A stretch of 64,000 nucleotides of DNA, taken from positions 186,001 to 250,000 of the forward strand of contig JAUHXH010000004.1 of the NCBI GenBank assembly GCA_030427085.1. The letters run 5' to 3'. Below are positions 36,760 through 63,702 of the stretch, piece after piece. This DNA is from Gammaproteobacteria bacterium. GTDB lineage: Bacteria > Pseudomonadota > Gammaproteobacteria > Pseudomonadales > Halieaceae. How positions within the stretch are numbered: the stretch's first letter is position 1; each line of letters begins with the position of its first letter. The notes under the pieces were generated by a model, which saw only the letters and a program-made list of their open reading frames with translations, did no database searches and had not been told where the DNA came from. Position numbers and translations under genes: made by a program.

Positions 36760-39189
<2,430 letters not shown>

Positions 39190-44433: not shown

Positions 44434-46865
44434 GACAAGCCCATCTTCTTTAAATGCTCGTCTACGTTCGAACTAAGAGTCTCCGCACTTTGGATTAAAG
44501 CCGGCAGCGGCTCGGCATAGCGCTCTTCCAATACTCTTACTCGGTTGGCCAGTTGCTGAGTAACCCGTTCTATCTCGCCGATGATGTTGGCCAGTAAGGT
44601 AGCCAGCCATTTGTCGTCGACGATCAGAGCTTTGATGTCTGCTTCGGTGAGCTGGGGATATTTTTCAAAGACCAGCTGATCAATTGCCTCCTTAGCGGCT
44701 TTGACGTCTTTCTTGTTAGCGGCCTCTGCTTCGAATAAATGCTTTGTATTATCGAGCGCTTTGATCTCATCTTCATCGGTAGCCACTTTCAACCTGGCTG
44801 TTACGCTACCTTTATTGACTTTGCCGCTATCATTAATGGCTTCTTCAAGCAGGCCACCTTCAACGGCATGCTCCTCGATAAACGATTCCAACTCCTGCGT
44901 ACAGGCATCGAGTACGGTTTGCTTTTCTTCGATCTCGGCTTGTTTATCGGCGAAGTATCGCCTGACGATAAGTGCCGGGGGAATCAATTCGGCTTTGTAC
45001 TTGGTCCTGTTGATAATCAGGTCGGGCGTCTCTTTTAGCTTCTCGCCTTTTTTCACCACCAGTTCACGGATACTGTTGGCCGCCAGCCACCCATCTTGGG
45101 TGATGAAGTAGACATCGTCCTGCATGATTTCAAACCAGTAATCCATCATGATCTGGTACATGTCGTACCGGTCCAACAGGGAGGCTTCCGTATAGGCTTC
45201 CAGCAAACTTTCGGAGATACGATGGATAACGTCTTTAGGGAAGTCGCCTTGGCTCAACCCCGATAAACTGGCATCACCTTTCCATTGCTCGAATAAGGCA
45301 AGAGACGCCTGCGCAAACTGTTTGAATTCAGCATGTTCGAGGATGGTGGTTTTCACTTCAGAGGCTTTTACCAACGCTCGGCTGTAACCAGGTCGCTCAT
45401 CTTCGAACAAGGTTTTACGCAATGTGGGAAAGACCTGCCAGTAGCGATCCAGGGCTTCGATATCGGCATTGGGAATACCGCCACTGAGGTGGGCGCTGAG
45501 GTCATGCAGGTCTTCGGCGGCTGCACTGTCGATATACCGGGGTATATTGAGGTTATAGTCGTTGCCTGCAATCTCGTTGAAGCCGACCATGCGGCTGTAG
45601 CCCGGCTGCTCGATCTGATTGTTGAATACATCGACGATTTTATGCAGATCCTGGTCGCGTAGCCGGTTCTTGGGGCCGTCCTTCATAAAGCCTTTGCTGG
45701 CGTCGATCATGAAGATACCGCTGTCTTCATCTTCCAAACGCGCCTTGGCTCCGTCTTTATCGATGACAATAATGCAGGCGGGTATACCGGTGCCATAAAA
45801 GAGGTTGGCCGGTAAGCCGATGATGCCCTTGATATAGCCCTGGCGAATCAGATTGCGACGAATACCGGCTTCGGCATTGCCCCGGAAGAGCACACCGTGG
45901 GGCAAAATCACAGCGCCTTTGCCGGTGCTCTTGAGAGACTTAAGGATATGCAGCAGGAAGGCATAGTCGCCGTTCTTCTCGGGCGGAATACCGTATTCAA
46001 ATCGAGCGTACTCATCTTCCTCAGGTAAAAACCCGGTATTCCAGGCCTTGAAGGAAAATGGTGGATTCGCCACTGCGAAATCGAAGGTTTTGAGTGCAGA
46101 GTTGTCTTGCTTGAACTCGGGCTCAGCCAGGGTACTGTGGCCACCCGGTGCTATTTCGGCATCGGCATTGTTGTGCAGGATCATATTCATTCGGCACAGT
46201 GCTGTCGTTGCGACATCCATTTCCTGTCCATAGATGCTTAAGCCCTTGCTGGCTTCATCAGCGGCTTTAAGTAGCAGGGAGCCTGAGCCACAAGTAGGGT
46301 CGTACACGGTGTGGTCTTGAGGGGTGTCTTGGGTAATGCCCACCACCTTGGCCAGAATGCGTGACACTTCGGCCGGGGTATAGAACTGGCCTTTGCTTTT
46401 CCCGGATTCCGTGGCGAAGTTACGCATCAGGTATTCATAGGCATCCCCCAGCAGGTCATCCCCCTGGGCGCTGTTGCCACCAAAATCCAGGCCCTCAAAA
46501 ATCCCAACCAGCGCCGACAGCTTGTCGACCATCGCTTTGCCTTTGCCGAGGCGCTCTTCGTCGTTGAAGTCGTTGTCCTTGTTCGCGAGCCAGGGCAGTT
46601 CATTTTCCTTGGCGATGCCATCAAGAACGATGTTGAGCTTCTCCCCTATTTCCTTATCGCCTTTTAGCTTGACCATGTCGGGGAAGGTGCACCCTTCCGG
46701 GACGACGATCATGGCCTTGGGATCACTCAGATACTTGTCGGAGACATACTTCAGGAACAGAAAAGTCAGTACGTAGTCTTTGTACTGTGAGGCGTCCATG
46801 CCACCGCGCAGTTCATCGCAGCTTGCCCAGAGAGAGGAGTAGAGCTCGGTCTTCTTGATAGCCAT
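44427..46865 (-). CDS. hsdM: Type I restriction modification methyltransferase subunit (HsdM)
   Basis: An 812-residue N6-adenine methyltransferase. The N-terminal HsdM helical domain is followed by motif I DPTCGSGSLLLKA and catalytic NPPF (AVANPPFSFKAW). The C-terminal 300 residues form a long, coiled-coil-rich extension (KAELIPPALIVRRYFADKQ, then charged helices) that makes this longer than EcoKI-type HsdM. It is first in the hsdM-hsdS-hsdR-ygjP operon. Confidence 0.96.
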   Translation of the reverse strand: MAIKKTELYSSLWASCDELRGGMDASQYKDYVLTFLFLKYVSDKYLSDPKAMIVVPEGCTFPDMVKLKGDKEIGEKLNIVLDGIAKENELPWLANKDNDFNDEERLGKGKAMVDKLSALVGIFEGLDFGGNSAQGDDLLGDAYEYLMRNFATESGKSKGQFYTPAEVSRILAKVVGITQDTPQDHTVYDPTCGSGSLLLKAADEASKGLSIYGQEMDVATTALCRMNMILHNNADAEIAPGGHSTLAEPEFKQDNSALKTFDFAVANPPFSFKAWNTGFLPEEDEYARFEYGIPPEKNGDYAFLLHILKSLKSTGKGAVILPHGVLFRGNAEAGIRRNLIRQGYIKGIIGLPANLFYGTGIPACIIVIDKDGAKARLEDEDSGIFMIDASKGFMKDGPKNRLRDQDLHKIVDVFNNQIEQPGYSRMVGFNEIAGNDYNLNIPRYIDSAAAEDLHDLSAHLSGGIPNADIEALDRYWQVFPTLRKTLFEDERPGYSRALVKASEVKTTILEHAEFKQFAQASLALFEQWKGDASLSGLSQGDFPKDVIHRISESLLEAYTEASLLDRYDMYQIMMDYWFEIMQDDVYFITQDGWLAANSIRELVVKKGEKLKETPDLIINRTKYKAELIPPALIVRRYFADKQAEIEEKQTVLDACTQELESFIEEHAVEGGLLEEAINDSGKVNKGSVTARLKVATDEDEIKALDNTKHLFEAEAANKKDVKAAKEAIDQLVFEKYPQLTEADIKALIVDDKWLATLLANIIGEIERVTQQLANRVRVLEERYAEPLPALIQSAETLSSNVDEHLKKMGLSW

Positions 46866-50400: not shown

Positions 50401-50635
50401 CTTCCGGGGCACCTTGACACGTGGTGATACGTTAAATGACAAGTCGCCCAACTAGTGGGTGGCGCCATGGAGTAGAAGTGTAACCGAACTCGACAAAAGC
50501 GTTGAGTAAATACAAGAAATCGGTGGTTTTAAAGTTCTGTTAACAGGGCTGAAGCTCCCGATCGAATAGAGCACACATCAGGCTCACTTCTTTGGCTCAA
50601 AACCGGAAGAAAGGCACGTGAAGAGGAGCGATAAC

Positions 50636-51265
50636 GTGATTAGAAAGATTGATAGCAAGTCAGCCGTTACTAATAGGTCGAGAATTCCGTCGGCCAAGAA
50701 TGGATGCCTGGTTCGTGTGGAATCTATGTTGGAAAGAGACATGGCACTTCGTCTTGAAATGTCCCCTCTTGTGATCTCTTACAAGGAGCAGGCAGGGCCC
50801 TTTCACTTTGAGCACCTAGGCAAACCGGTCAAAGCAATACCGGACTTCGAGATCGTATTTGCTGACGGATCTATTGAATACATCGAGGTCAAGCCTTGGC
50901 AGAAGGCAAGCAGTGAATCTAGGGCAAGCAAGCTACGAGCGACAAAGGTGCATCTGCATGAACTTGGCTACAAATATGAAGTCATGACGGAAAGGGAGAT
51001 TCGAAGTTGTAACCAGTTGCTTCAGAACTGCATGTACCTAAACCCGTTTAAGTGGAGATCTAGAAACCGTACTGAGGAGCTTTTCGACCTGGTGCCAGAC
51101 CAAGAGACTACGATCGAATCGCTAGGAAAGTCGATAGATAATCCGCAGGCCGTTATAGAGCTGATATCACATCAGTTCGTGTACTGCGATCTTTACCAAA
51201 GAATCACTATGGACTCCAGGATAAGACCGGTTACGGATGGTGACTACTGGTCGTTGTACATCTGA
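50636..51265 (+). CDS. tnsA: Tn7-like transposase endonuclease subunit TnsA
   Basis: A 209-residue restriction-like endonuclease that cuts the 5' ends of the transposon so it moves by cut-and-paste. Catalytic residues are visible in MLERDMALRLEM (Glu33), IPDFEIVF (Asp70) and YIEVKPWQ (Glu84, Lys86). The GTG at 50636 is chosen because GAGGAG lies seven bases upstream; a GTG at 50618 would add six residues. It is first in the operon. Confidence 0.85.
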   Translation: MIRKIDSKSAVTNRSRIPSAKNGCLVRVESMLERDMALRLEMSPLVISYKEQAGPFHFEHLGKPVKAIPDFEIVFADGSIEYIEVKPWQKASSESRASKLRATKVHLHELGYKYEVMTEREIRSCNQLLQNCMYLNPFKWRSRNRTEELFDLVPDQETTIESLGKSIDNPQAVIELISHQFVYCDLYQRITMDSRIRPVTDGDYWSLYI

Positions 51266-51286
51266 GCTGTTTCGGGAGACGAACGA

Positions 51287-53224
51287 ATGATTGCCACGCT
51301 GCAGAAAGACTCGATTGTAACTATTAGAAATAGGCGATTGAATGTTGAAGAGCTGAACATGACGACTGGCCAAATTCGCCTTGTCGACGGAATGGGAAGG
51401 GCCTGGATTAAGACCATCTCTGAGTTCACGGAACTCTACCTTAGCAAGGAATTGAAACTAAAGCCGAATGAACGGGACATGCATGTCTGCGCAGAGAGTA
51501 GTCGACGTTCTCTAGAACGCATGCTTACCCAGAAAGAGATTGATGAAGCCCAGCGAAGGCTTGGCTATGTGATGAGCATTCTGGACGAGCAAGGCAGCAA
51601 GATTAAGTCATCTGTAGAGAGAGTCCGCCGGCTGAAACAACATGCTGTTTCAATCGGCGAGAAAGTGGCCATGAGCGACCGTAATGTGACACGTCTCTAT
51701 TCAAATTGGCATGCGAATGGACGTGTCATTGATCACTTAGTTCCGATGTATCGAAACTGTGGTAATCGTACTGAACGGCTGAAGACCCTTGTATGTGATC
51801 TCATTGAAGAGACAATCCAAAATGAATACATGAGTGAAACCAGGCCAACGGTACAGAAAATAGTAAACCTAATTAATGAACGGATAAGACGAGAGGCGAA
51901 ATATTTGGACTGCACCGAGGTTGCCAGGTCTACCGTGCAACGGAGGATAGACGCGATCCCGGCCTACGATAAATGTGTAGCGAGAGAGGGCTTCTTTGCC
52001 GCCCAACGTAAATTCCCTCATGGCTCAAAGGTAGTAGAGCCCTGCTATCTCAACCAGGAGGCGGAGTTAGACCACACACCGCTGGATGTTGAGGTACTTT
52101 GCCCTGATACGGGAGAGGTAATTGGCCGGGTTTGGCTGACTCTGGAAGTGGAGAGAAAAGCCGGTTTGATCAGGGGATATTACCTCTCCCCCAATGCCCC
52201 AAGCGCTAGAAGTGTGATTGAAACCGTTAAATGTGCGGCCCTTCCAAAGGACCACATACTGCAGCGATATGACGAAACCAAAGATTCTGAGTGGCCTTGT
52301 TGGGGTCAGGTTACGACCTTGGTAGTCGACAACGGACCTGACCTGCATAGCAAGCTCGTCCTAAACGGAATGACAAATCTCGGCATTACCGTCCAATACA
52401 ATCCGAAGGGGAACCCTCGCTATAAAGGAAAGGTAGAGCGGGTGCTAGGTGTACTTAATGAGGAAATAACAGAGATTATGCCGGGTCGTACATTCTCGAA
52501 CTATGTTGTCAAAGGAGACTACAAATCGAAGAAGAATGCGATTCTAACTCTAGATGACTTAGAAAAAATTCTGGTTATTTGGATCGTCAGAGACTTTCAC
52601 CAGCGCAAGGTTCGTCAAACTAAGATGTCGCGCCTGGAAAAATGGAAGCAGCATGAAATGGAAATTCCAGCGATTGGACTACCGCCAACGGCCGAGGACT
52701 TCGACAAGCTCCTCTGGAAGAAAGATTCAAGAACACTTGGCTACAAAGGCGTTGAGATTAATTGTCGGTACTACAACTCAGTTGAGCTACAGAATATCGC
52801 CAAGTTGAAGAATCACGGTTGTAAAGTCGACGTATACACGGATGAGACAGATATCAGCATTATTCGCGTGAACATACCAGGCACTGAAGACGTGATCGAT
52901 GTAGGTCTCGCTGATAGCGAGTACGCCCGATTGAACCTAAGTCTCGACGACCATGAACAGGCCATCGAATTAGCAAGAAAGCGAAACCCCAGTATCAAAA
53001 GGCCAGGGAAGCTTTCGGAGGCAATGCTGATGTCAGCTTGGAACGAGATCATACGTATCCGCGAGGAAGCTGCCGTCTCGAAAAAAGTTCGAAATCGTGA
53101 AGCTGAGAGTAAGAGACGAATTAAGTCTATCGCCAAAAAAGGCGATGGCACTCAAAAGAACAGCAAAGAGCGACACAGAGAAATTGAATCAGTGTCGTTG
53201 ATACCAAACCCGGAGGACGTTTAG
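51287..53224 (+). CDS. tnsB: Tn7-like DDE transposase TnsB
   Basis: A 645-residue integrase-fold transposase that cuts and joins the 3' ends. Catalytic triad candidates are Asp262 (ELDHTPLDV), Asp348 (TLVVDNGPD) and Glu384 (KGKVERVLGVLNEE). N-terminal HTH regions for end binding precede them, and a basic tail (KKVRNREAESKRRIKSIAKK) follows, probably for TnsC contact. It lies 21 bases after tnsA. Confidence 0.92.
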   Translation: MIATLQKDSIVTIRNRRLNVEELNMTTGQIRLVDGMGRAWIKTISEFTELYLSKELKLKPNERDMHVCAESSRRSLERMLTQKEIDEAQRRLGYVMSILDEQGSKIKSSVERVRRLKQHAVSIGEKVAMSDRNVTRLYSNWHANGRVIDHLVPMYRNCGNRTERLKTLVCDLIEETIQNEYMSETRPTVQKIVNLINERIRREAKYLDCTEVARSTVQRRIDAIPAYDKCVAREGFFAAQRKFPHGSKVVEPCYLNQEAELDHTPLDVEVLCPDTGEVIGRVWLTLEVERKAGLIRGYYLSPNAPSARSVIETVKCAALPKDHILQRYDETKDSEWPCWGQVTTLVVDNGPDLHSKLVLNGMTNLGITVQYNPKGNPRYKGKVERVLGVLNEEITEIMPGRTFSNYVVKGDYKSKKNAILTLDDLEKILVIWIVRDFHQRKVRQTKMSRLEKWKQHEMEIPAIGLPPTAEDFDKLLWKKDSRTLGYKGVEINCRYYNSVELQNIAKLKNHGCKVDVYTDETDISIIRVNIPGTEDVIDVGLADSEYARLNLSLDDHEQAIELARKRNPSIKRPGKLSEAMLMSAWNEIIRIREEAAVSKKVRNREAESKRRIKSIAKKGDGTQKNSKERHREIESVSLIPNPEDV

Positions 53225-53226
53225 CA

Positions 53227-54168
53227 ATGAATGAACCAAGTCTTGACCTGCAGGATCGACTACTTTCATCCGTCGTTCACTATGAAAAATTCGATGAGGC
53301 CTTAAGGGTTTTTGGTCGACTTACAGATTTCAGCTTAATGGGGGGAAAGGCCCAAGGTCTGCTACTTGTGGGAGAGTCCTCCAACGGCAAAACCACGCTG
53401 GCGAGAGAGATGATCGAATTGTATCCCGTCGTTAGAGAAGAGGAACGGATGCGCATCAGGGTCATAATGCTAAGTATGCCCGCGAATCCGACGATAAGAA
53501 CATTTTGCATGCGGCTTCTGGATTCGTTTGGTAGGCATTATGGAAATCGTGACTCTGAAGCGAAGCTCACTCAAGAGGTACTTGAACTGCTCAAGGGATG
53601 TGGGACTGCGATGTTAATTATCGATGAAGCACAGCACTTAGTAGATGGCAAAAAGATTAACAAAACACCTGCTGAAGTTGCTGACTGGATAAAGCAGCTT
53701 ATGAACGATGCAAATGTATCGGTATCGCTAATCGGAACACCCAGAGTTGAACAGCTACTGGTGGCCAATGGGCAACTCCGTAGCCGTTTCTCGAGGAAGA
53801 TCGAATTAACCGGTTACAGTATCGACTGTCAGGAATCCATACAGGACTTTTGTAACATTGTCGCAAGACTTATCAAAGAATCTGAATTCACAGGTGACCC
53901 TAGCTACATATACGATACAAATGCCCTGTCTCGCCTATATCACGCAACTGACGGCAGAATAGGATACATCGCTAAGCTGTTGGCAGAAGCAATCTGGATA
54001 TGCCAGTCCCAGAATGAAGACGCTCTCACCAGAGAGCATTTTGCAAAAGCGTTTGAAACTGTAGTTTGGTTTGGCGCTAGTAGTAAGAACAACCCTTTCG
54101 ATGGAGAACTTAACTATAGAAAACTAGTGGAGGAAGGTGAACCCTTTTTCCCAGGGGAAGTACATTGA
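53227..54168 (+). CDS. tnsC: Tn7-like AAA+ regulator TnsC
   Basis: A 313-residue ATPase linking target selection to the transposase. Walker A GESSNGKT (49-56) and Walker B AMLIIDEAQ (128-136); GTPRVEQLL and SRFSRKIEL fit sensor and arginine-finger regions. It is shorter than E. coli TnsC (about 555 residues), resembling the compact TniB-like form. It lies two bases after tnsB, and its stop overlaps the first tniQ start. Confidence 0.9.
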   Translation: MNEPSLDLQDRLLSSVVHYEKFDEALRVFGRLTDFSLMGGKAQGLLLVGESSNGKTTLAREMIELYPVVREEERMRIRVIMLSMPANPTIRTFCMRLLDSFGRHYGNRDSEAKLTQEVLELLKGCGTAMLIIDEAQHLVDGKKINKTPAEVADWIKQLMNDANVSVSLIGTPRVEQLLVANGQLRSRFSRKIELTGYSIDCQESIQDFCNIVARLIKESEFTGDPSYIYDTNALSRLYHATDGRIGYIAKLLAEAIWICQSQNEDALTREHFAKAFETVVWFGASSKNNPFDGELNYRKLVEEGEPFFPGEVH

Positions 54169-54887
54169 GTAGTCAGCTTCTAGTTCACCCCCGACCGAGT
54201 GTTGGACAAAGTGTTGAATGCTATCTTAGGCAGTTGGCCAGAGAAAATGGTTTTCCCAGTGCGTTGTATATGCTCAGGCAGGTTCTAGGAACTATGGGAC
54301 CGTTCTCCGATAGGATTTCGATGAGTCAGCTACGGCGATTCACCGGTCATAGTGAAGACGTGCTTTCACAAACACGATTATCACTGTTGGACTCGGAAGG
54401 TCACCCAGAATATGCCTTTGGTGCGATTAGAATACCGAGCTACCAACTTCGTTCAGATGAAGGTTACTGCCCCTTCTGTTATAAAAATCTGGGATATATG
54501 AAGGCACATTGGCGTATAGCCTGGCTTCCCGCGTGCCTGGAACATCAGTGTTGGCTTGAGCCCCACGATGGCAAAGCAGTGCATGAGGACTATATAGACT
54601 TAAACGACTTATCGCGAACCTTCAGTGTTCCCGAGTATGTTCTCAAGGTTCAGCACGTGTTGGAACAACGCTTGCAAATCGAGGCACAGCAATATGGTTC
54701 CAACCCTACTGAAGATAGTGTTATCGAACTTATTGATCAGCACCTGCTAAAAGCGCTAAAACTGGATAACATCGAGTCGATTCGTAAACGAAAACGCCGC
54801 CACCCTATGAGGTACTTTCCCTTAGACGATAAAGATACATTGAAGTTTATGGAGTGCCTTCATGTACAGCTGGCTGCTGAAGAATGA
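54165..54887 (+). CDS. tniQ: TniQ-family target-selection protein 1 (240 aa)
   Basis: A short TniQ protein. The N-terminal TniQ signature LLVHPRPSVGQSVECYLRQL is followed by a zinc finger (YCPFCYKNLGY then WLPACLEHQCWL: CxxC and CxxH). It ends soon after, with no long DNA-binding C-terminus, so it may be an adaptor to TnsC rather than the site-reading protein. It overlaps tnsC and the second tniQ by 4 bases each. Confidence 0.87.
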   Translation: MSSQLLVHPRPSVGQSVECYLRQLARENGFPSALYMLRQVLGTMGPFSDRISMSQLRRFTGHSEDVLSQTRLSLLDSEGHPEYAFGAIRIPSYQLRSDEGYCPFCYKNLGYMKAHWRIAWLPACLEHQCWLEPHDGKAVHEDYIDLNDLSRTFSVPEYVLKVQHVLEQRLQIEAQQYGSNPTEDSVIELIDQHLLKALKLDNIESIRKRKRRHPMRYFPLDDKDTLKFMECLHVQLAAEE

Positions 54888-56641
54888 CCGTCGACCGGCA
54901 TTTATTAGTATTCCCGCGACCGAAGATCGGAGAGTGCGCAAGGGCGTTTGCATGGCGGCTTTCCAAAATGAATGGCCTCCAGTCTCCCGCGCTCCTGGTT
55001 AAACACCACTCAAGTAAGCGCTGTCTGGAAGACGGTTTGTGGGATATCTACAGAAAGAATCTATCGGCCGAGTCTCTGAACGTTCTGTCTAATCGATTAA
55101 AGCGCGCTGACGAGCGTAACTGGTTGAGGTCTGGCTTCCGAGTTTGCCCAATTTGTTATAAATCTGAACCCTATCTGCGCAACAAGTGGCAGTACGCGCT
55201 GGCGCCGGTCTGCAGAGCCCACCGGCGGCCGCTTCAAGAGCTTGGCCCAATCTCTAAGCTCGATTGGTGTTTGGATGACCTGTCTCTCTGGGGGCATCCT
55301 GAAGAACTCGGTGAAGGCGATACTGGTGGATCATTAGAGCTCCAGGAGTACATTGAATTTCGTCTGGGCTTCATCGATACGTGTCCGACTACACATGTTG
55401 CTCGTCACCTCAAAAACCTCACCATCGATCAAATAGCGAAGCTGCTGATACTGCTTGGCGGGTATCTCTCTCATGGGCTTCGTTTTCAACCTCGTAAAGC
55501 TCCTGTCAAATCATCTTCTCAAGCTGCGTTTGAAGTCTTGGCTGCCGCCGCTAGCGTCCTGTGTACGCGTGATCTCGATATGAACCTATTTTTAGACAGA
55601 TTAATTAGTACGAAGGAGAAGTGTAGGAGTCTACAGGCGCGGATTGGTTACGTGCACATGGCTATGAATCGGGAGCTCCGTGATAATGAGTTCAAACCAT
55701 TTAAAGATGCGTACTACGCTGCCGTACGAGCTAAATGGCCGGAGTCAATTGATATTAAGAGTTCAGCGGTATCGCGGGCTAAGAATGGTAACTACACCAG
55801 CGGCACCGCGTTTTCGCGTAGCGTTGGCGTGAGCAGTGAAACCACTGTGAGGTGGATAGAATCAAAGCGAATTGCGGGTCACATTAGAACAACCCGGAAT
55901 GGACGGCGCCAAATATCGGTTAAGAATGGGCAGTTAGAAAAAGCTCGCCGGTTGATGTCGTCGTTTAGCCTAAAGGAAGCCGCTGAATATCTGGGTCTAA
56001 AGAAAAAAGCGGTAAGACTGCTCATCGAATCTGGGGACATTGCAGCTTGTCGTGCTACCGCAAGCGGGCCCTGGTATTTGGAAAGAGCTACTCTAGATTG
56101 GTTTACTAGTCGACTAGCGGAGAACTCCAAGAACCTTGAGAGCAAGATACCTACAGTAACCCTTGATCGATTTATGCGGTACTACGCGCCTAAGGGAGTA
56201 TCACAACATTCAGTCCTAATGGCTCTTTTAGCAGGCCAGTTAAACTTCAGGCTGCTGAAAAGCCGAGGCCGATTGAGTAAGAGGCTGTGTCTCGAGGCAG
56301 AATCTTGTAGAGATTGGTGTATCGGAAGCTCCCAATATACTGTCCCGGCCCTCGCCAGAATGCTCAAAGTGAAGCAAGACGTGGCTTACCACCTAATCAA
56401 TCAAGGCTTTATCGAATCCAGCTCCCGGGGACGTATCGGCAGAGTCGTCGGGGAGAAGGCCATTAATTCGTTCAAGGGCCGGTACGTGTTAGGGCGTGAT
56501 CTGGCATCGCAGCTGGGTGTGAGTCCGAAGTCACTAGCCGCAAGTTTGTCAGTAAAGGGGATTAACCCGGTCTCAGGCCCAGGCATCGATCGAGGTAGAC
56601 AACTAGTTTATCTTCGTAGCGAGGCGCTTAATTCTAGCTAG
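54884..56641 (+). CDS. tnsD: TnsD/TniQ-family target-selection protein 2 (585 aa)
   Basis: The TniQ domain (LLVFPRPKIGECARAFAWRL) and zinc finger (VCPICYKSEPY, APVCRAHRRPL) are followed by about 400 extra residues holding several helix-turn-helix units: SGTAFSRSVGVSSETTVRWI, FSLKEAAEYLGLKKKAVRLL, TVPALARMLKVKQDVAYHLI and GRDLASQLGVSPKSLAASL. This array suits recognition of an extended attachment site, as TnsD does for glmS. The target here is unknown, though glmS is in the same window 40 kb away. It is last in the operon. Confidence 0.85.
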   Translation: MTVDRHLLVFPRPKIGECARAFAWRLSKMNGLQSPALLVKHHSSKRCLEDGLWDIYRKNLSAESLNVLSNRLKRADERNWLRSGFRVCPICYKSEPYLRNKWQYALAPVCRAHRRPLQELGPISKLDWCLDDLSLWGHPEELGEGDTGGSLELQEYIEFRLGFIDTCPTTHVARHLKNLTIDQIAKLLILLGGYLSHGLRFQPRKAPVKSSSQAAFEVLAAAASVLCTRDLDMNLFLDRLISTKEKCRSLQARIGYVHMAMNRELRDNEFKPFKDAYYAAVRAKWPESIDIKSSAVSRAKNGNYTSGTAFSRSVGVSSETTVRWIESKRIAGHIRTTRNGRRQISVKNGQLEKARRLMSSFSLKEAAEYLGLKKKAVRLLIESGDIAACRATASGPWYLERATLDWFTSRLAENSKNLESKIPTVTLDRFMRYYAPKGVSQHSVLMALLAGQLNFRLLKSRGRLSKRLCLEAESCRDWCIGSSQYTVPALARMLKVKQDVAYHLINQGFIESSSRGRIGRVVGEKAINSFKGRYVLGRDLASQLGVSPKSLAASLSVKGINPVSGPGIDRGRQLVYLRSEALNSS

Positions 56642-56961
56642 AGTTCGCTTGCAAAGACTCGGCTAGCAGCTATCTTTTTTATTGGACGTCTGATTGAAAG
56701 TTCTGCATTGATGGAAAAATTCGAGAAATTGGTGTTGCACCAGTCCATTGCTTGGCGCTAGTACTTTAGCCGTGTCCTATCACTCGAGCACCAGAGTGTA
56801 GGGTCCAGTGCTCAAACTTTCCGCCAATCGTTAGAACAAAGAAAGGCGTCTGGCCGAGTATTTGAAGAGCCACTTAAGTAAGCGCAGATAAATCCTCTTA
56901 AGATGTAGATCGGCAATCAAAGTTCAATAGTAAGCGTTTGTGTTAACTCATGGAGAAAATT
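56642..56961. other. Gap between tnsD and the 134-residue cargo gene
   Basis: A 320-bp gene-free stretch after the transposition genes. No terminator with a T tract, no TnsB-like repeats and no ORF with a ribosome-binding site were found. It probably holds the promoter of the gene at 56962. Confidence 0.3.
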
Positions 56962-57366
56962 ATGAATGAACTGGAAGTTCTAAACGACGACTTAAGCGTA
57001 TTCTTTTCGGATGATGAGACTCTAGTTAGCGAAGTTTCGGCAGAAGAAAGGCAGATAAATGACGAGGAAGATAAATATTACTCAGGAAGCGATGAGGCTC
57101 TTACAAGATCTTGCGCGAGAATTCGATACGGTTCGTCTTGCGGTTTCGCAAAATCTGGACGTATTGCGTATGTAGTCAATGCAAGGAATGACCGCCGCGT
57201 CAGAGCGACAGTAAGAGTGAGGTGGCGTCAAGGAATCAATAATGGTCAATATGACCGGGTACACGTAATCCCAGCCGGCAGTGAAAAACAGCTTGGATGT
57301 ACGCGTAGTGGTAGCATTCCTGTGGCTGACTATAGCTTCAGCGTTGTAGGGTGTGAGGTATTGTAG
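56962..57366 (+). CDS. Unknown cargo protein with acidic leader and basic beta-rich C-terminus (134 aa)
   Basis: The ATG at 56962 has GGAG six bases upstream; that GGAG includes the upstream ATG at 56950, so the shorter form is preferred. Residues 1-45 are very acidic (NDDLSVFFSDDETLVSE, INDEEDKYY) and leader-like; residues 55-134 are basic and strand-rich (RIAYVVNARNDRRVRATVRV) with four Cys. The shape, and the position next to peptide-maturation genes, would suit a second modified precursor or an exported small protein. No family is recognised. Confidence 0.55.
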   Translation: MNELEVLNDDLSVFFSDDETLVSEVSAEERQINDEEDKYYSGSDEALTRSCARIRYGSSCGFAKSGRIAYVVNARNDRRVRATVRVRWRQGINNGQYDRVHVIPAGSEKQLGCTRSGSIPVADYSFSVVGCEVL

Positions 57367-57646: not shown

Positions 57647-58720
57647 CTATATGGCTCGATCGTTTAACAACGTGATCTGCTCAAGAACGCGTTGTGAAAT
57701 CTTGTGTTTGTGTTCCTCTAATGGTTTAAGTATACCAATCTTGAATCCTTGCTCGGCTCGTTGAATCAAGTAGTCACTCTCCTGGGTCTCAAGCCCGCGT
57801 GCTACTAGCTGCCACATCTTAAAGACCGAGAACCATATAAAGCAGGCCTGAACATATGTTGAAACTGAAAGGAAGGACTGAGTCCAGGGGGATTGAACCA
57901 CTCTCTTTTGATCACAGGATGTAAAGGGGAAATCTAGCTCCACTAGATCAAGTAAGGAATGCACGGATTCGTGTAGCAAGCATTCAACTACACGCTCTAC
58001 AGATGCTGAAGATAAATGGGGATTGTGAAAAACGGGCCTACCGTGACAAATCGGTGTTGAGCATGATCTGAACCGGCCATCTGATTCATCTCTACGAACT
58101 ACTATTACATGGGTTAGGGTATTGATGATCTCTAGATGCTTTGGAGCGTATAAATCTAGGATTTCCGCTGACTTTCGAAACTTTCTCACGCATTCATCAA
58201 ATAAATCGGGCGTCCATCCCTCATGAACCCCTGTAACTTGCTCGAGTCTTCCCTGCATTTGGGTGCTATATCCGTCAACTGGTATTCCGCCCGCTATTGT
58301 TGGCGACCGGTATATCTCCTTGCCGAAAATCTTTGCGTCGCCAAGCGCAGTCCATTTACCATCGTCCTGACGGATAATGCTTTCTGAGCTAAACAGTCCA
58401 CTTGAGTCGACTAGCTCTTCGACCCTGAGGTAATACTTAAGCCTCTGGAGCAAGTGGCTTGAGTTTGTCTTGGGTTTTGATATCAATTCCCACAGTACGG
58501 GAGAGCAAATTACTCGATCAAACAACTTGGTAGAGGCGTTTGACGCGATTTTTTCTAGCTCCTCGATACACACCCGAGATGATTCCGACCGGTCAAGGCG
58601 AAGAAGTTCACCAATCCGCAGTCCGATTTCTTTTTGCCTTCTTTCTTTCAGTAATCTGAGAGTCGAACTTGTGCTCGATTTACCAGAAACTACATTGACT
58701 ATTTCTTCCACCGATATCAA
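57647..58720 (-). CDS. HExxH peptide-modification protein 2
   Basis: A 357-residue protein with ECLLHESVHSLLDL (metal ligands His250 and His254, Glu251). It is a clear paralog of the protein upstream: both have an HExxH motif followed about 40 residues later by SPW and then QACF(I/V)W. The pattern matches the HEXXH-motif family linked to radical SAM RiPP clusters, members of which are annotated as alpha-ketoglutarate-dependent peptide beta-hydroxylases (from memory). It is the last gene of the maturation operon, four bases after its paralog. Confidence 0.7.
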   Translation of the reverse strand: MISVEEIVNVVSGKSSTSSTLRLLKERRQKEIGLRIGELLRLDRSESSRVCIEELEKIASNASTKLFDRVICSPVLWELISKPKTNSSHLLQRLKYYLRVEELVDSSGLFSSESIIRQDDGKWTALGDAKIFGKEIYRSPTIAGGIPVDGYSTQMQGRLEQVTGVHEGWTPDLFDECVRKFRKSAEILDLYAPKHLEIINTLTHVIVVRRDESDGRFRSCSTPICHGRPVFHNPHLSSASVERVVECLLHESVHSLLDLVELDFPFTSCDQKRVVQSPWTQSFLSVSTYVQACFIWFSVFKMWQLVARGLETQESDYLIQRAEQGFKIGILKPLEEHKHKISQRVLEQITLLNDRAI

Positions 58721-58724
58721 AGGT

Positions 58725-59903
58725 TCAAAGCTCCGGAAAGTCCCCTTCGATAACTCGCTTCTGTATGTTGTCTATAGTTTCCACTAGTTCAGGATCTGTA
58801 TGGCATCTCCAATCCTTGATGTGATCTACCAGTCGAGATTTATAGAAGCCTGTGCGTGCATCGAACGCCATTCTGGAGCTCCTCTCTTCCCCGAATACAG
58901 CTGCGCTCTGAGGGAGAGACCAAAACATATATAGTCCATACCAGACAAAACACGCCTGCATAAACTGTCTAGGCGTGAGCGGCCTTCCGCTCCAAGGCGA
59001 CTCACTACTGTAGCCATCTCCAAAGTAGACATCCGAATCTGTCACCCAGGGTTTGAATCGTTCTTGCATATAAAGAACAGAGTGGATCGCTTCGTGGACT
59101 AAGCCATCAGCCAGTACAGCACTATCAACTCCGTGAGCTGTTGGATTGATCAAGCATGTCCGACCCACATATTGGCCTGTTGAGCCAGAAGTAAATCTCC
59201 TAGGATTTTGCTCGTCCTTACGTATTACAAGGCTAAGAGTAAATTGCCGCACGAAATCCTGTACGTTTTTGTTTACCTCTCCAATCATTTGATAGGAATC
59301 TTCTAATCGGCGAACGATCTGTTGCTCCTCCTCCAATGTATAGCAACTGATTGGCTGGTCAGAGCACAGCCTTTTGAGTTGTTCGATGCTCATTTGGGGG
59401 TTGGTGGGTTCTAGTGAAACGGCGAGTGCATGTGGACTTCGAAAGTCAATCGGTATCTTGCCGTCTAGATAAGCTGTCTCTATCACACGCCGTTTTTCGC
59501 TGGGAACTATCTTTAGATATTCTTTGTTGACTAGAGTTTTCTCTCCATTGCAAGACCATAGCAATGAATCAGATCCTTGGGGATCTATATCTTCTAGGTG
59601 CTCTGCGGCTAAGACTCTTTTAAAGTAGCTCTTGTTCTGTTCCGCACGGTTAGCGAAAAAGAAAACATAGAAACTAGTTTCTGCTGAATGGATGATCTTC
59701 TCATGATAACTGTCTTGGCAGTGGCCCCAAGAATCGATGAGTTCATCTCCATTTTGACTGTCTTCTTTCTTTATTGAAGCAAATGACCGGCCAATTGCTT
59801 TAGCTACAGTGTCGTGATAGCTGTTGAATAGGTCCGCTAGATGAGGGACAGATTCTTCGCCCCACGTGAGCCAGGATGGTGTGTTTTCTAGTGAGATACT
59901 CAT
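58725..59903 (-). CDS. HExxH peptide-modification protein 1
   Basis: A 392-residue protein with DGLVHEAIHSVLYM (His270, Glu271, His274) and the downstream SPWSGRPLTPRQFMQACFVW segment typical of the HEXXH-motif RiPP family. The N-terminal 200 residues differ from the paralog and may bind the precursor. It overlaps the radical SAM gene by 4 bases (ATGA), so it is translationally coupled. A hydroxylase acting on the precursor is the likely role; a peptidase is less likely. Confidence 0.75.
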   Translation of the reverse strand: MSISLENTPSWLTWGEESVPHLADLFNSYHDTVAKAIGRSFASIKKEDSQNGDELIDSWGHCQDSYHEKIIHSAETSFYVFFFANRAEQNKSYFKRVLAAEHLEDIDPQGSDSLLWSCNGEKTLVNKEYLKIVPSEKRRVIETAYLDGKIPIDFRSPHALAVSLEPTNPQMSIEQLKRLCSDQPISCYTLEEEQQIVRRLEDSYQMIGEVNKNVQDFVRQFTLSLVIRKDEQNPRRFTSGSTGQYVGRTCLINPTAHGVDSAVLADGLVHEAIHSVLYMQERFKPWVTDSDVYFGDGYSSESPWSGRPLTPRQFMQACFVWYGLYMFWSLPQSAAVFGEERSSRMAFDARTGFYKSRLVDHIKDWRCHTDPELVETIDNIQKRVIEGDFPEL

Positions 59904-61123
59904 GATCCCTCCCTTGATCGCTTCTCTTTGACCCTTGCCAGCGCCTTTCGGCGGAGAATTGTCTCGCTAACGGAGACTTCCAAGTTACTCCTGACGGTGT
60001 CAAAAATAGATAAAATGTCTGCACACCAAACCGATGGATAATCAAAATTCCCTAATGCTTGTTCGGAATCTGTGGGTCGAAATCTATGAGGCAGGTAGCC
60101 ACCACCACAAGTTGTGTACTCTGGGCAGGAAGAGCAAAGCGAGGGCTTAGGAATATCTCCCCTCAGCGCCATTGACGCTAGTCCTTCATGTCTTATGTAG
60201 TCTTCGACTGTATGATCAAAGACATTTAGCCCACTAACACCATGATCACCATCACAAATTTTAAGTACGTCTAAACCTTCCAGTTCGCCGTTCGTTTCTA
60301 TAAAGATGTAGGGGCAACCCTCGCCACCCAGGGTGTCATTGATTGAAACTCCACCCATCACTATCCCAGCGATCTGTCTAAATATAGAAACATTCGTATC
60401 TAGGCTGGAGTTTTGCCACCAATACTCGAATATCGGGATCAGAAAATCCGCTACGGGTGTTGGCCCGAATTCTTTAGAAATCTGGATGTGCTCCTTCAGA
60501 CTTACATCAGGAAAAAGGTAATCAATATTCTTAAAACCTAGATCAAGTAGTGTTTCGTGGACGTCCAAAGGCTTCTGCCCAAGCGGTATCACGCATAGAG
60601 CACCGAATGATAAGCCTGCCTCTCTCAACGCGTTTAGTCCCAACCTCACCCTCTCAAAGGTACCCTTACCTTGGTGGTCAATACGATGCCTATCGTGGAC
60701 GTGCTTTGGCCCGTCGATGCTTACTCCAATACTCACATCAAAGCGGCGAAAAACATCTATCCACTCGGAGGTAATTAGGGTCGCATTCGTTTGAATAGCG
60801 AATCGTAGGTCGTCTACAGGTAAGTTCTTCTGTGCATATTCACAGAGCTGTTGGAACTCTCTAGCTCCGAAAAGCGTTGGTTCCCCACCATGGAAGGTTA
60901 AGCGCACTTCGTTCAATTTGTGCGCTGTGCAGTAATCCGAAATACGGTTTATTGCTTGTTTTTGTACTTCAGGCGGCATTAGTTTGGGTTTGGTGGCCCA
61001 ACTGCTGTCCCCCTTATGGTAGACATAGCAATAGGTGCAATCGATGTTGCACCTAGAGGCAATTTTCAGAATAAAAGACTTGACCTTGGGTGATGGTCTT
61101 CCAACACCCTGCGAAGCGGCCAT
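59900..61123 (-). CDS. Radical SAM/SPASM peptide maturase (cyclophane-type)
   Basis: A 407-residue enzyme. Radical SAM cluster C25, C29, C32 (SRCNIDCTYCYVYHKGD), GGEP motif in LTFHGGEPTLFG, and a C-terminal SPASM domain with auxiliary-cluster cysteines (GGEGCPYIF, LKICDG, SLCSSCPEYTTCGGGY, SVWCADI). The sequence style (IASRCNIDCTYCYVYHKGD) matches the FxsB/XyeB-like group that joins an aromatic ring to a beta-carbon two residues on (three-residue cyclophanes). It lies 17 bases after the precursor gene and overlaps the first HExxH gene. Confidence 0.85.
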   Translation of the reverse strand: MAASQGVGRPSPKVKSFILKIASRCNIDCTYCYVYHKGDSSWATKPKLMPPEVQKQAINRISDYCTAHKLNEVRLTFHGGEPTLFGAREFQQLCEYAQKNLPVDDLRFAIQTNATLITSEWIDVFRRFDVSIGVSIDGPKHVHDRHRIDHQGKGTFERVRLGLNALREAGLSFGALCVIPLGQKPLDVHETLLDLGFKNIDYLFPDVSLKEHIQISKEFGPTPVADFLIPIFEYWWQNSSLDTNVSIFRQIAGIVMGGVSINDTLGGEGCPYIFIETNGELEGLDVLKICDGDHGVSGLNVFDHTVEDYIRHEGLASMALRGDIPKPSLCSSCPEYTTCGGGYLPHRFRPTDSEQALGNFDYPSVWCADILSIFDTVRSNLEVSVSETILRRKALARVKEKRSREGS

Positions 61124-61140
61124 GTGGATCGGCGCGATTG

Positions 61141-61410
61141 TTACAGACGAGTTTGAGCTAAAAACTCTTTTGCAAATTCTTTGTCGGCTGCCTCTGACAG
61201 CCGAACAACATCCTCTTGGTTAAAAATCTGCGCTCGACTGAAGTCGTGGCCACTGCGACTGTGATGAGAACCAGTGCTTCTTGAAAAGCCGCCTTCACCC
61301 CCTCCTTCCTGGGTATAGGCTCGAAGAGCCAGTTGTCCCTCTAGGCTCTCTTTCAAGGCGTCCATAACAAGAACCTTGGATTTCGACTTTGGAGAATCAT
61401 ACTTGCTCAC
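61141..61410 (-). CDS. RiPP precursor peptide with three aromatic-Ser-Arg motifs (89 aa)
   Basis: The GTG at 61410 is preceded by a perfect AAAGGAG eight bases upstream. Residues 1-35 are leader-like (LVMDALKESLEGQLALRAY); the middle has a Gly/Ser/His-rich core with three Ω-Ser-Arg triads: Phe42-Ser-Arg44, His50-Ser-Arg52 and Phe57-Ser-Arg59. A helical tail (DVVRLSEAADKEFAKEF) follows, so the core is internal. Aromatic-X-X triads are the substrate of three-residue cyclophane maturases, and the third residue, Arg, is also a possible peptide-arginase substrate. It is first in the operon. Confidence 0.75.
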   Translation of the reverse strand: MSKYDSPKSKSKVLVMDALKESLEGQLALRAYTQEGGGEGGFSRSTGSHHSRSGHDFSRAQIFNQEDVVRLSEAADKEFAKEFLAQTRL

Positions 61411-61525
61411 AACTACTACTCCTTTAGCGTTTGTTAACAGTGCTGAATCTGCATATTCTTACGTTGCGGGAAAGGTTTCCTGCATTGTGAACTAGGCGTC
61501 ACTTCCGACCTAAGGAACACCAGTC
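61411..61525. promoter_or_regulatory. Divergent promoter region of the RiPP cluster
   Basis: 115 bases between the precursor gene (minus) and the arginase-fold gene (plus). It contains the AAAGGAG site (61419-61425) of the precursor. It should contain start signals for both directions; no clear -35/-10 pair could be fixed. Confidence 0.4.
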
Positions 61526-62506
61526 ATGAAATGGTACGAACTGTATTCCGATGAGGCAGGAAAAGATAGCAACGCCATCATATCCCAACTTAGCTCCGTT
61601 ATCAGGAATGTCAACCTAGAGTTGTCAGAAAAAATAGATCGGTTCCGGATCTTGGGTCCGAATATGAGCCATATGAATGCTGATCCAGAGTTAAAAGAGG
61701 TGTTGGCAGAGTCGGGTCTAAACTACTCTGCTGACTCTGTGCTTAGATTTCACGAGTCTTGCTCGGCATATGACTTCTCGTTGGAAGACTCGTGGAGCGG
61801 TTACTTCATCGCTAAAGAACTGAGTAAGAATCCTGATGTGAGTACTTTTGCAGTTCTTCACTTAGATGACCATATGGACATGATGCCCGCGTTACTAACT
61901 AGTGTTGACGGAGCATTGTACGATCTAGCTTCAGGTTCTGCGTTTCACTGTAAGAGCCCGGGTGATTGGGAGGGGGCGATTAAATCCGGGGGAGTGGGTA
62001 TCGGGAATTTCTTTACGCCATTTTTTTGGTCCATGAAGTGGGTAGACATTGTTCATTTGAGCGCGCACCCAGCTCTCCAACGGGAGAAGCTCAAGGTAGT
62101 ACTAAAACCTTTGCCGGTTCCGCTCACGCGAAATACAAAAATTATTGGGCTACGCTTGACAGACCAATCGGATGTACCCGCAGTAGGAAGCTATTTTCGC
62201 ACAGATGACCCATACGAGGCGCTTTCGATGCTGCCGAAGGGTACAGTGTTTGGCCATGTTGATCTTGATTACTTTGAGAATTCTTATAACGGACGTGGTG
62301 GATTGGGCAAGAATAAGGAAAAGTCTTCAATCAGCCGCGAGGGACTGTCCCGTATGAGTAGTTTTCTAGGTGCATTGCGAGAAACTGATCATGTCTTCAA
62401 ACGGTGGATAGTTGCTACCTCTCCCGGATTCTGTGCCGCCCGCTACTGGAAGACTTTCACTGATGAGCTCGCATTGGTTTTACCAGGCACAAGAAACCTG
62501 CCCTAG
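61526..62506 (+). CDS. Arginase-fold protein, probable peptide arginase (UPF0489-like)
   Basis: A 326-residue protein with arginase-type metal motifs: VLHLDDHMDM (Asp114, Asp115, His116, Asp118) and GHVDLDYFEN (Asp246, Asp248). Members of the UPF0489 family with this layout, found in RiPP clusters, hydrolyse arginine side chains of a precursor to ornithine. The precursor opposite offers Arg in each of its three aromatic-Ser-Arg triads. It is divergent from the precursor by 115 bases. A free-arginine ureohydrolase is less likely given the context and the deviating motif spacing. Confidence 0.72.
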   Translation: MKWYELYSDEAGKDSNAIISQLSSVIRNVNLELSEKIDRFRILGPNMSHMNADPELKEVLAESGLNYSADSVLRFHESCSAYDFSLEDSWSGYFIAKELSKNPDVSTFAVLHLDDHMDMMPALLTSVDGALYDLASGSAFHCKSPGDWEGAIKSGGVGIGNFFTPFFWSMKWVDIVHLSAHPALQREKLKVVLKPLPVPLTRNTKIIGLRLTDQSDVPAVGSYFRTDDPYEALSMLPKGTVFGHVDLDYFENSYNGRGGLGKNKEKSSISREGLSRMSSFLGALRETDHVFKRWIVATSPGFCAARYWKTFTDELALVLPGTRNLP

Positions 62507-62754
62507 CCATTTTCCATCTCGGGCCTATTTCGCTGAAAGCCATCTTTTCAAGTTGGCTGATCCTTAAATGAATCTATAGTTCTCCGCTCTTCTGTCGGTC
62601 GACGACGCGTTGGAAGTTTTCAGAATGGGCTTTGGAGAAGCCCATCTTTTTGACGGATTGCCACTTGATAGATGAAAGCCTATTTCTCTGGTTTAATGGG
62701 AATGAGTCAACTAAAAAGCTAGCTTACAATAGAATCCAAGGAAGGCCCCCTACG

Positions 62755-63702
62755 ATGCTAACTTTAGAGGAAGGAGTAGAAGAGCTCACACCGCTACTTA
62801 AGTCGGGAAGACTCATTGCATTTGTCGGTTCCGGGATGTCGATAGATTCAGGCCTACCGAGCTGGGATGGATTCCTCGAAGACTTCATTAGCTTCTGTAG
62901 AAACATCAAAGACCAGTACGGTCGTAGAGAGACTGGTGTATTCGACACATTGCTACCGGATAAGCTTCTTGAAGATGCAGGAGTAGAGAAGGAATTTAGG
63001 CCTGCGCATGTTGCGATGGTTCTTAAGGATGCCATATACAGTACTCCCGAGCATATTAGGAGCAACATCGAAAACGATTTTAAAAAATGGTTTTACCGTC
63101 AGTTCGTAATGGCGGAGCCGAACAAAAATCATTATCAAATTGTCGGTACTAAATACCCATTCATTCTCACATCGAATTACGATTTGTTACTTGAGGAGGC
63201 GCAAAAATCTATCGGCGTCCCATATGGTAGCTATTCGCTCTTTGATAAGGAGCGCGTCGTTTCTGCAATTTATCAAAATGCACCCTCCATTATTCATGTA
63301 CATGGAAAATACGACGAAGCACTCTTTGATAAGATAGTGTTTACTGCGAAAGACTATATTGAGATAACGAAGAATAAATATCCCGGCTCTAGGTTCATTC
63401 TTCAAAGTCTTTTTGCGCAGTATTCGACGGTCTTTTTTGGTTACGGGGCTAGCGACCCACATCTAGAGGATTTGGCTGAGGAATTGAGCTACTACCTTGA
63501 TTTCTCAGTCGATGTGGATTTGCCAAAGAGCTATTTAGTAGTTCTGAAATCGAAAATAAAAGACGATGGCATTTTTGACAGATATAAAGAGGCCCTAAGA
63601 ACAAAGTTGATAGGAATCAACGACCTACAGGAATATGACCAGCTTTTATGGAAGCTAAACATGGCGGCGCCTCGGGAGAAAATCGACTTTTCTCAGGATT
63701 GA
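62755..63702 (+). CDS. SIR2-domain protein, probable defence NADase
   Basis: The ATG at 62755 (AAGGAAGG upstream, MLTLEEGVEEL) is preferred over a longer frame from 62632. The N-terminal NAD site RLIAFVGSGMSIDSGLPSW matches SIR2_2-type proteins, with ILTSNYDLLLEEA, IIHVHGKYDE and VFFGYGASDPHLEDL following in the expected order. Such proteins deplete NAD upon phage infection in several abortive-infection systems. A second gene follows 21 bases downstream, suggesting a multi-gene defence operon. It is part of the Tn7-like cargo. Confidence 0.85.
   Translation: MLTLEEGVEELTPLLKSGRLIAFVGSGMSIDSGLPSWDGFLEDFISFCRNIKDQYGRRETGVFDTLLPDKLLEDAGVEKEFRPAHVAMVLKDAIYSTPEHIRSNIENDFKKWFYRQFVMAEPNKNHYQIVGTKYPFILTSNYDLLLEEAQKSIGVPYGSYSLFDKERVVSAIYQNAPSIIHVHGKYDEALFDKIVFTAKDYIEITKNKYPGSRFILQSLFAQYSTVFFGYGASDPHLEDLAEELSYYLDFSVDVDLPKSYLVVLKSKIKDDGIFDRYKEALRTKLIGINDLQEYDQLLWKLNMAAPREKIDFSQD

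What the first reader, a model, noticed from the sequence alone, without database searches (positions are those of the whole stretch)
57647..62506. A RiPP cluster combining radical SAM/SPASM, two HExxH proteins and an arginase-fold enzyme
Seen: a precursor gene (GTG start, perfect ribosome-binding site), a radical SAM/SPASM gene, two paralogous HExxH genes in one operon, and a divergent arginase-fold gene. Known: FxsB/XyeB-like maturases make three-residue cyclophanes; HEXXH-motif proteins and UPF0489 peptide arginases are RiPP tailoring enzymes. Inferred: the product would carry cyclophane crosslinks, hydroxylations and ornithines together. I do not know a characterised cluster with this exact set in a gammaproteobacterium.
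Basis: partly seen in the sequence, partly recalled or inferred. Interest (0 to 1): 0.88.

Follow-up and report, generated by a model that had tools for sequence, protein, structure and literature searches.

The report
Cyclophane RiPP cluster with divergent arginase
This is a small horizontally acquired gene cluster that very probably turns a ribosomal peptide with three aromatic-Ser-Arg motifs into a cross-linked, hydroxylated peptide, and that carries a poorly known arginase-like enzyme, lacking one usual metal-binding residue, which probably changes the arginines of the cross-links into ornithines.

Summary
A GTG-started 89-aa precursor, a radical SAM/SPASM enzyme, two HExxH proteins (one operon, minus strand) and a divergent arginase-fold gene are all present at the stated places. 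The radical SAM protein belongs to the FxsB/YhhB group of three-residue-cyclophane formers but scores below both curated cut-offs. The precursor core, GGFSRSTGSHHSRSGHDFSRAQIF, has three aromatic-Ser-Arg motifs; YhhB is known to join Tyr/His to the beta-carbon of Arg in such i,i+2 motifs. The arginase-fold protein has no family match of its own. Its few relatives sit beside a radical SAM gene in Caballeronia telluris and after yhhB in yhhA-yhhB clusters on five alphaproteobacterial plasmids. Profile and fold searches place them with the peptide arginase OspR, but the whole family has Ser where OspR has its metal-binding His (EEH to (E/Y)DS). No activity has been shown. Verdict: new variant of a known kind; the altered arginase paired with Arg-cyclophanes is the interesting part.

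The parts
61141..61410 (-). Precursor peptide, 89 aa, GTG start; predicted core region about residues 40-63 GGFSRSTGSHHSRSGHDFSRAQIF with FSR (42-44), HSR (50-52), FSR (57-59); acidic follower after it
   Evidence: ORF and ribosome-binding site AAAGGAG; position directly before the radical SAM gene as for yhhA and L029; three aromatic-x-Arg motifs; no homologue found
59900..61123 (-). Radical SAM/SPASM enzyme, 407 aa, FxsB/YhhB group; predicted to form aromatic-to-Arg(beta-carbon) three-residue cyclophanes
   Evidence: CNIDCTYC motif; NF041707 291.5 bits, TIGR04269 282.5 bits; ChlB radical SAM domain best PDB match, E 1e-51; 42% identical to Rhizobium enzymes paired with an HExxH protein
58725..59903 (-). 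HExxH protein 1, 392 aa, predicted aKG/Fe-dependent peptide hydroxylase
   Evidence: TIGR04267 E 9.5e-10, 38.7 bits, 40.6 bits; HEAIH and the downstream Glu conserved; profile of the group matches ChlH 8S5F, E 6e-13
57647..58720 (-). HExxH protein 2, 357 aa (TTG start), predicted aKG/Fe-dependent peptide hydroxylase
   Evidence: TIGR04267 E 2.9e-12, 46.9 bits over cut-off 40; HESVH and downstream Glu conserved
61526..62506 (+). Arginase-fold protein, 326 aa, divergent from the operon; metal motifs DDHxD (114-118) and DxDYF (246-250); Ser89 where peptide arginases have the His ligand
   Evidence: Relatives only in radical SAM clusters; profile hits OspR 8BRP, E 6e-5; alignment to OspR; fold search of the Caballeronia relative returns OspR and ureohydrolases
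61411..61525 (.). 115-nt divergent intergenic region, presumed to hold the promoters of both arms
   Evidence: Coordinates; no promoter-like excess in the consensus scan, so regulation is inferred

Best explanation
A triceptide-type RiPP cluster. The radical SAM enzyme joins Phe42, His50 and Phe57 of the precursor to the beta-carbon of the Arg two residues on (FSR, HSR, FSR), giving up to three cyclophanes (inferred from family and motif). One or both HExxH proteins then hydroxylate residues in or near these rings (inferred from ChlH, which needs a preformed cyclophane). The arginase-fold enzyme, from a divergent branch related to the peptide arginase OspR, acts on the guanidine of the core arginines, most likely giving ornithine and urea (inferred). 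Leader/follower removal and export depend on genes not in the cluster. Shown here: gene set, families, motif plan, fold, and the repeated linkage of this arginase branch to cyclophane-forming radical SAM enzymes. Not shown: any chemistry, order of steps, or bioactivity.
For: Radical SAM family. YhhB makes Tyr(C3)-Arg(beta) and His(C2)-Arg(beta) links (PMC11002830), and YhhA cores end YDRMHHRHNRS, three aromatic-x-Arg motifs, as in the window (FSR, HSR, FSR). A genome of the same family has YNR/HNR/HNR with radical SAM, YhhC-type 2OG oxygenase and HExxH genes. HExxH: TIGR04267; ChlH hydroxylates His and Asp of a cyclophane peptide (PMC12636437). Arginase arm: all relatives found lie beside a radical SAM gene: Caballeronia, 34%, next to a GrrM/OscB-like enzyme, and five plasmids, with yhhB. 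Its start overlaps the yhhB stop in Novosphingobium, and in R. tumorigenes it is fused to a GNAT in one frame; in phaeornamide a GNAT acylates hydroxyornithine made by an arginase and a hydroxylase (PMC9505594). OspR similarity by profile, alignment and fold. Relatives without core Arg (L013, L015) lack the arginase gene.
Against: Arg in a cyclophane core does not require this enzyme: L025/L026 and L031/L032 have FxR motifs and no arginase gene beside them. The arginase family has lost the His ligand, so it may have another activity or none. In the window the arginase gene is divergent, not in the operon. The Caballeronia peptide has no aromatic-x-Arg motif. The middle residue of each motif here is Ser, not the Asp/His/Asn of yhhA, so what the HExxH enzymes hydroxylate is unclear; both also have Gln where ChlH and most relatives have a conserved His. 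No precursor homologue, no protease or exporter in the cluster.
Confidence: 0.62

Rival explanations
1. The arginase-fold protein is not an arginase in action: with the His ligand replaced it holds one metal or none and either hydrolyses a modified guanidine (for example N-hydroxy- or cross-linked Arg, as the arginase-fold N-hydroxyarginine hydrolase with a Cys at a metal-site position does) or serves as a binding, immunity or scaffold protein.
For: (E/Y)DS in place of EEH is invariant in all relatives while DxHxD and DxD are kept, which looks like a changed but selected site; the N-hydroxy-L-arginine hydrolase, whose structures are named by mutation of Cys86, is among the closest folds. That its Cys86 sits at the same ligand position is my own recollection, not tested here.
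Against: Five of six ligands are kept; the fusion to a GNAT fits production of a free amine on ornithine.
Confidence: 0.25
2. The HExxH and radical SAM enzymes do other chemistry: oxidative backbone cleavage (as PflC/PosC) that trims the peptide, or cross-links at other motifs such as HHS or HDF instead of the three aromatic-Ser-Arg sites.
For: HExxH enzymes of Pseudomonas cleave the backbone to make an amide terminus (PMC12636437); the cluster has no protease; two different HExxH proteins suggest two jobs; Rhizobium relatives act on repeats MHDQTHSEGG with no Arg.
Against: The window precursor has no ARMD-like motif and the triple aromatic-x-Arg plan matches YhhA.
Confidence: 0.2
3. The cluster is an anti-phage or island-maintenance cassette rather than a secreted antibiotic.
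For: Neighbours: SIR2_2 gene just downstream, type I restriction genes and a Tn7-like module upstream; related clusters sit beside pAgo/Aga (L008) and CBASS (L009, L010).
Against: Defence genes cluster on mobile islands anyway; no background rate was measured; the Caballeronia neighbour tested has no PADLOC hit.
Confidence: 0.12
4. A decaying or chance assembly on a mobile island, with no product.
For: Island setting; one other genome of 98 relatives has such a radical SAM gene.
Against: All five frames open, tight spacing and overlaps, ligands kept in both HExxH proteins.
Confidence: 0.05

Closest known systems
yhhA-yhhB-(arginase-fold)-GNAT-glycosyltransferase clusters of Rhizobium and Novosphingobium plasmids (YhhB family NF041707)
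   Same: Cyclophane-forming radical SAM, HExxH domain, arginase-fold protein; precursor with three aromatic-x-Arg motifs
   Different: There radical SAM and HExxH are one protein (split by an IS in one), core is YDRMHHRHNRS, GNAT and glycosyltransferase follow; here radical SAM and two HExxH proteins are separate, middle residue is Ser, no GNAT or glycosyltransferase, radical SAM only about 32% identical
Chl cluster (ChlB/ChlH, fused radical SAM + aKG-HExxH)
   Same: Cyclophane formation followed by HExxH beta-hydroxylation; ChlB and ChlH are the best PDB matches
   Different: Fused there; two unfused HExxH proteins here, both with Gln for a His that ChlH has; I know of no arginase in Chl
Biphenomycin clusters (bip/bpm/pbs)
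   Same: Aromatic cross-link by a radical SAM enzyme, HExxH hydroxylase (BipH/BpmH) and peptide arginase (BipC/PbsE) on one peptide
   Different: B12-dependent radical SAM, MNIO, JmjC hydroxylase, TldD protease there; biaryl not cyclophane; standard UPF0489 arginase with EEHxE
Peptide arginase OspR (8BRP) and UPF0489 (PF12640)
   Same: Ureohydrolase fold; HVDEHSDL and DIDYF motifs align; C-terminal helix aligns
   Different: OspR has EEH with the His ligand; the whole family here has (E/Y)DS; no PF12640 match over the cut-off
Rhizobium lusitanum / R. ruizarguesonis radical SAM + HExxH loci (L013, L015)
   Same: Closest radical SAM found (42%), separate HExxH protein just after it
   Different: Long repetitive precursor with MHDQTHSEGG repeats there and no Arg in the repeat, NAL1-like peptidase-domain gene, no arginase, one HExxH gene

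Membership tests
YhhB / FxsB cyclophane-forming radical SAM/SPASM (NF041707, TIGR04269) | Score over the curated cut-off | tested here: not met
   291.5 of 445 bits and 282.5 of 370 bits
YhhB / FxsB cyclophane-forming radical SAM/SPASM (NF041707, TIGR04269) | CxxxCxxC and full-length homology to the family | tested here: met
   CNIDCTYC; aligned over residues 14-382, E 8e-87
Triceptides (three-residue cyclophane RiPPs) | Precursor with repeated aromatic-x-x motifs next to the enzyme | tested here: met
   FSR, HSR, FSR
Triceptides (three-residue cyclophane RiPPs) | C-C cross-link between aromatic ring and beta-carbon at i+2 | not testable with these tools
   Needs co-expression and MS/NMR
aKG-HExxH peptide hydroxylases (TIGR04267) | Score over cut-off 40 bits | tested here: met
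   P0001 46.9; P0002 borderline, 38.7 or 40.6
aKG-HExxH peptide hydroxylases (TIGR04267) | HExxH plus downstream Glu conserved | tested here: met
   Both proteins
aKG-HExxH peptide hydroxylases (TIGR04267) | aKG and Fe dependence | not testable with these tools
   Biochemical
Peptide arginases, UPF0489 (PF12640) | Score over Pfam cut-off 27 bits | tested here: not met
   No match for P0005 or P0008; best relative P0012 22.9 bits, E 1.2e-4
Peptide arginases, UPF0489 (PF12640) | DxHxD and DIDLDYF motifs | tested here: met
   DDHMD 114-118, DLDYF 246-250, key residues invariant in relatives
Peptide arginases, UPF0489 (PF12640) | EEH(N/H)EAF with the His metal ligand | tested here: not met
   (E/Y)DS in all relatives, aligned to OspR EEH
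Peptide arginases, UPF0489 (PF12640) | Ureohydrolase fold | tested here: met
   Low-confidence model of the relative P0008, yet OspR first in Foldseek and ureohydrolase-fold chains fill the VIA-align list; profile E 6e-5 to OspR
Peptide arginases, UPF0489 (PF12640) | Arg to Orn activity | not testable with these tools
   Biochemical
Biphenomycin-type RiPPs | MNIO and B12-dependent radical SAM in the cluster | tested here: not met
   Neither among the five genes or the two flanking genes tested

The most novel reading that the evidence does not exclude
A separate branch of arginase-fold enzymes, with the His metal ligand replaced by Ser, that acts only on arginines already built into radical-SAM cyclophanes (perhaps also hydroxylated), giving ring-bound ornithine that partner GNATs acylate in some clusters; the cassette travels on mobile islands among phage-defence genes.
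Probability: 0.25. Interest if true: 0.8.

Novelty: new variant of a known kind. Interest (0 to 1): 0.6.

Why it matters
If the chemistry holds, the product would carry a residue not described in the papers found here: an ornithine whose beta-carbon is bonded to a Phe or His ring. The arginase branch is unannotated in every record seen ('hypothetical protein', or GNAT where fused), so naming it would give a function to a gene that follows yhhB in several plasmids and would help read what those clusters make. The missing His ligand is also a clean test of what the arginase metal site needs.

Tried and rejected
Structure model of P0005 itself (two-sequence alignment): mean pLDDT 49, Foldseek gave only G-protein chance hits; not used. 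Model of the relative P0008 is also low (pLDDT 43) but its matches are consistent, so used as support only. Precursor homologues in plasmids: none. Arginase relatives in phages and viral contigs: none; viral radical SAM hits were 24% and not followed. Relatives in sampled genomes: none but the window in 369 class and 398 phylum genomes, none in the 199 other genomes of the Caballeronia family, none in G027, which has a YhhA-like core but a contig end beside it. Recent duplication of the two HExxH genes: rejected, 22% identity and no supported joining in the tree. A strict rule 'Arg in core means arginase gene': rejected (L025, L026, L031, L032). Transposon ends with target-site duplication: not found. 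Promoter and terminator scans: no excess over shuffles. UPF0489 in 60 genomes and the controls: no hits, so uninformative.
Full report
What is there. The five genes of the finding are present at the given coordinates. On the minus strand a precursor gene (61410-61141, GTG, AAAGGAG upstream) is followed after 17 nt by a radical SAM/SPASM gene (61123-59900), which overlaps the first HExxH gene (59903-58725); the second HExxH gene (58720-57647) follows after 4 nt. On the plus strand, 115 nt from the precursor start, lies the arginase-fold gene (61526-62506). G+C is 46% in the operon and 53.5% in the chromosomal stretch 1-39189 of the window. The island lies between gyrB (36766-39189) and ordinary chromosomal genes that resume just past the window and carries a type I restriction system, a Tn7-like tnsA-tnsB-tniB-tniQ module and a SIR2_2 gene. 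The two HExxH genes are the only ones in the genome, and one other genome of 98 relatives has a radical SAM protein of this kind.

Radical SAM enzyme. NCBIfam places it in the cyclophane-forming group: YhhB E 8e-87 (291.5 of 445 bits), FxsB E 5e-84 (282.5 of 370 bits); the best solved structure is the ChlB radical SAM domain, E 1e-51. It is thus a member of the group but of neither named family. The closest sequences found are two Rhizobium plasmid enzymes at 42%, each followed by an HExxH protein.

Precursor. No homologue was found, but its plan is telling: three aromatic-Ser-Arg motifs in the core (FSR, HSR, FSR; 0.4% of within-core shuffles reach three aromatic-x-Arg motifs). YhhA peptides of Rhizobium and Novosphingobium end in YDRMHHRHNRS, and the other genome of the same family has YNRTHNRHNR, each with three aromatic-x-Arg motifs. 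YhhB is reported to form Tyr C3-Arg beta-carbon and His C2-Arg beta-carbon links (PMC11002830). The most economical reading is three Phe/His-to-Arg cyclophanes.

HExxH proteins. Both match TIGR04267. A profile of them and three relatives matches ChlH (8S5F), E 6e-13. HExxH and a Glu seven residues on are kept in both; a His conserved in ChlH and most relatives is Gln in both. ChlH hydroxylates His and Asp of a peptide with a preformed cyclophane (PMC12636437). In the window the middle residue of every motif is Ser, so the target cannot be copied from ChlH or YhhB; related HExxH enzymes can also cleave the backbone (PMC12636437). The two proteins are old relatives, not a recent duplicate.

Arginase-fold protein. 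Pfam and NCBIfam do not recognise it. Relatives are rare: one in the GTDB species set, in Caballeronia telluris, 34% identical, beside a GrrM/OscB-like radical SAM gene and a 52-aa peptide gene ending SWGSAMRK, and five plasmids, where it directly follows yhhB or its split copy. In Novosphingobium the genes overlap by one base; in R. tumorigenes one frame holds this protein and the following GNAT; in R. leguminosarum yhhB and this gene read as one frame, which may be a sequencing slip. A profile of five members finds OspR (8BRP), the solved peptide arginase, first in the PDB at E 6e-5; one member reaches UPF0489 at E 1.2e-4 but under Pfam's cut-off. Aligned to OspR, HVDEHSDL matches H(V/L)DDHxD and IANFIYPALYQGVFSQVYWLRQ matches the GIGNFFTP region, but OspR's EEH is (E/Y)DS throughout. 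The His of that motif is a metal ligand (PbsE His10; PMC12257519; six-ligand motif in PMC12703449). A model of the Caballeronia relative is of low confidence (pLDDT 43), yet Foldseek puts three OspR chains first and the 50 entries listed by VIA-align (Z 8.5-10.5) are ureohydrolases or, in one case, an arginase/deacetylase-fold polyamine hydrolase, OspR at 10.3.

How it most likely works. Radical SAM cross-linking of FSR/HSR/FSR, HExxH hydroxylation, and conversion of core Arg to Orn by the arginase-fold enzyme. The link of the last step to Arg is circumstantial: in all arginase-bearing loci with a recognised precursor the peptide has Arg in its C-terminal part, and the HDQ/HSE repeat systems L013 and L015 lack the gene, but several FxR systems lack it too (L025, L026, L031, L032). 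Biphenomycin work also found that clusters whose precursor lacks the Arg lack the arginase (PMC12257519). In phaeornamide an arginase, a hydroxylase and a GNAT act in turn on one residue (PMC9505594), which makes the GNAT fusion a fair pointer to ornithine. The missing ligand is the main reason for doubt.

Comparison and novelty. The combination is not unprecedented: biphenomycin A needs a radical SAM cross-link, an HExxH hydroxylase and an arginase (PMC12257519, PMC12707348), and yhhAB plasmids carry an uncharacterised version of the present set. I did not find this branch described in the papers held, but key subscription papers (Sugiyama 2022; the ChlB/ChlH paper of 2024) could not be read, so earlier mention there is possible.

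Noticed in passing
window 50618-56641: Tn7-like transposition module (TnsA, TnsB-like, TniB, two TniQ) next to the cluster, downstream of gyrB; no clear ends or target-site duplication found.
   Followed up: partly
window 62632-63702: SIR2_2-domain protein just downstream of the arginase-fold gene, resembling parts of several candidate defence proteins (Dsr, ThsA, PDC-S25).
   Followed up: partly
window 39384-46865: Type I restriction-modification genes with a metallopeptidase-like gene, between gyrB and the Tn7-like module.
   Followed up: no
window 56950-57366: Orphan 138-aa protein with four Cys and no family match between tniQ and the RiPP operon.
   Followed up: no
L008-L010, L014: Related radical SAM/HExxH clusters lie next to pAgo/Aga, CBASS and Pycsar genes on rhizobial and Novosphingobium plasmids; whether this exceeds chance was not measured.
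   Followed up: partly
L011:8698-10209: Arginase-fold domain and GNAT in one 504-codon open frame, annotated only as GNAT.
   Followed up: yes
L025:6453-6722 and L026:5132-5390: Radical SAM genes with glycine-rich precursors full of FRR/FVR motifs and no HExxH or arginase gene.
   Followed up: partly
L013:5054-6196 and L015:4229-6127: Very long precursors with many MHDQTHSEGG-like repeats before a radical SAM and HExxH gene, and a NAL1-like peptidase-domain gene after them.
   Followed up: partly
L028:1451-6510: Radical SAM, HExxH and an apparent peptidase-domain ABC transporter with a 37-aa GG-type precursor ending WNRTGRG.
   Followed up: no
L005:8920-13833: Caballeronia cluster joining the arginase relative with a radical SAM enzyme, a GMC oxidoreductase and a carbamoyltransferase.
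   Followed up: partly
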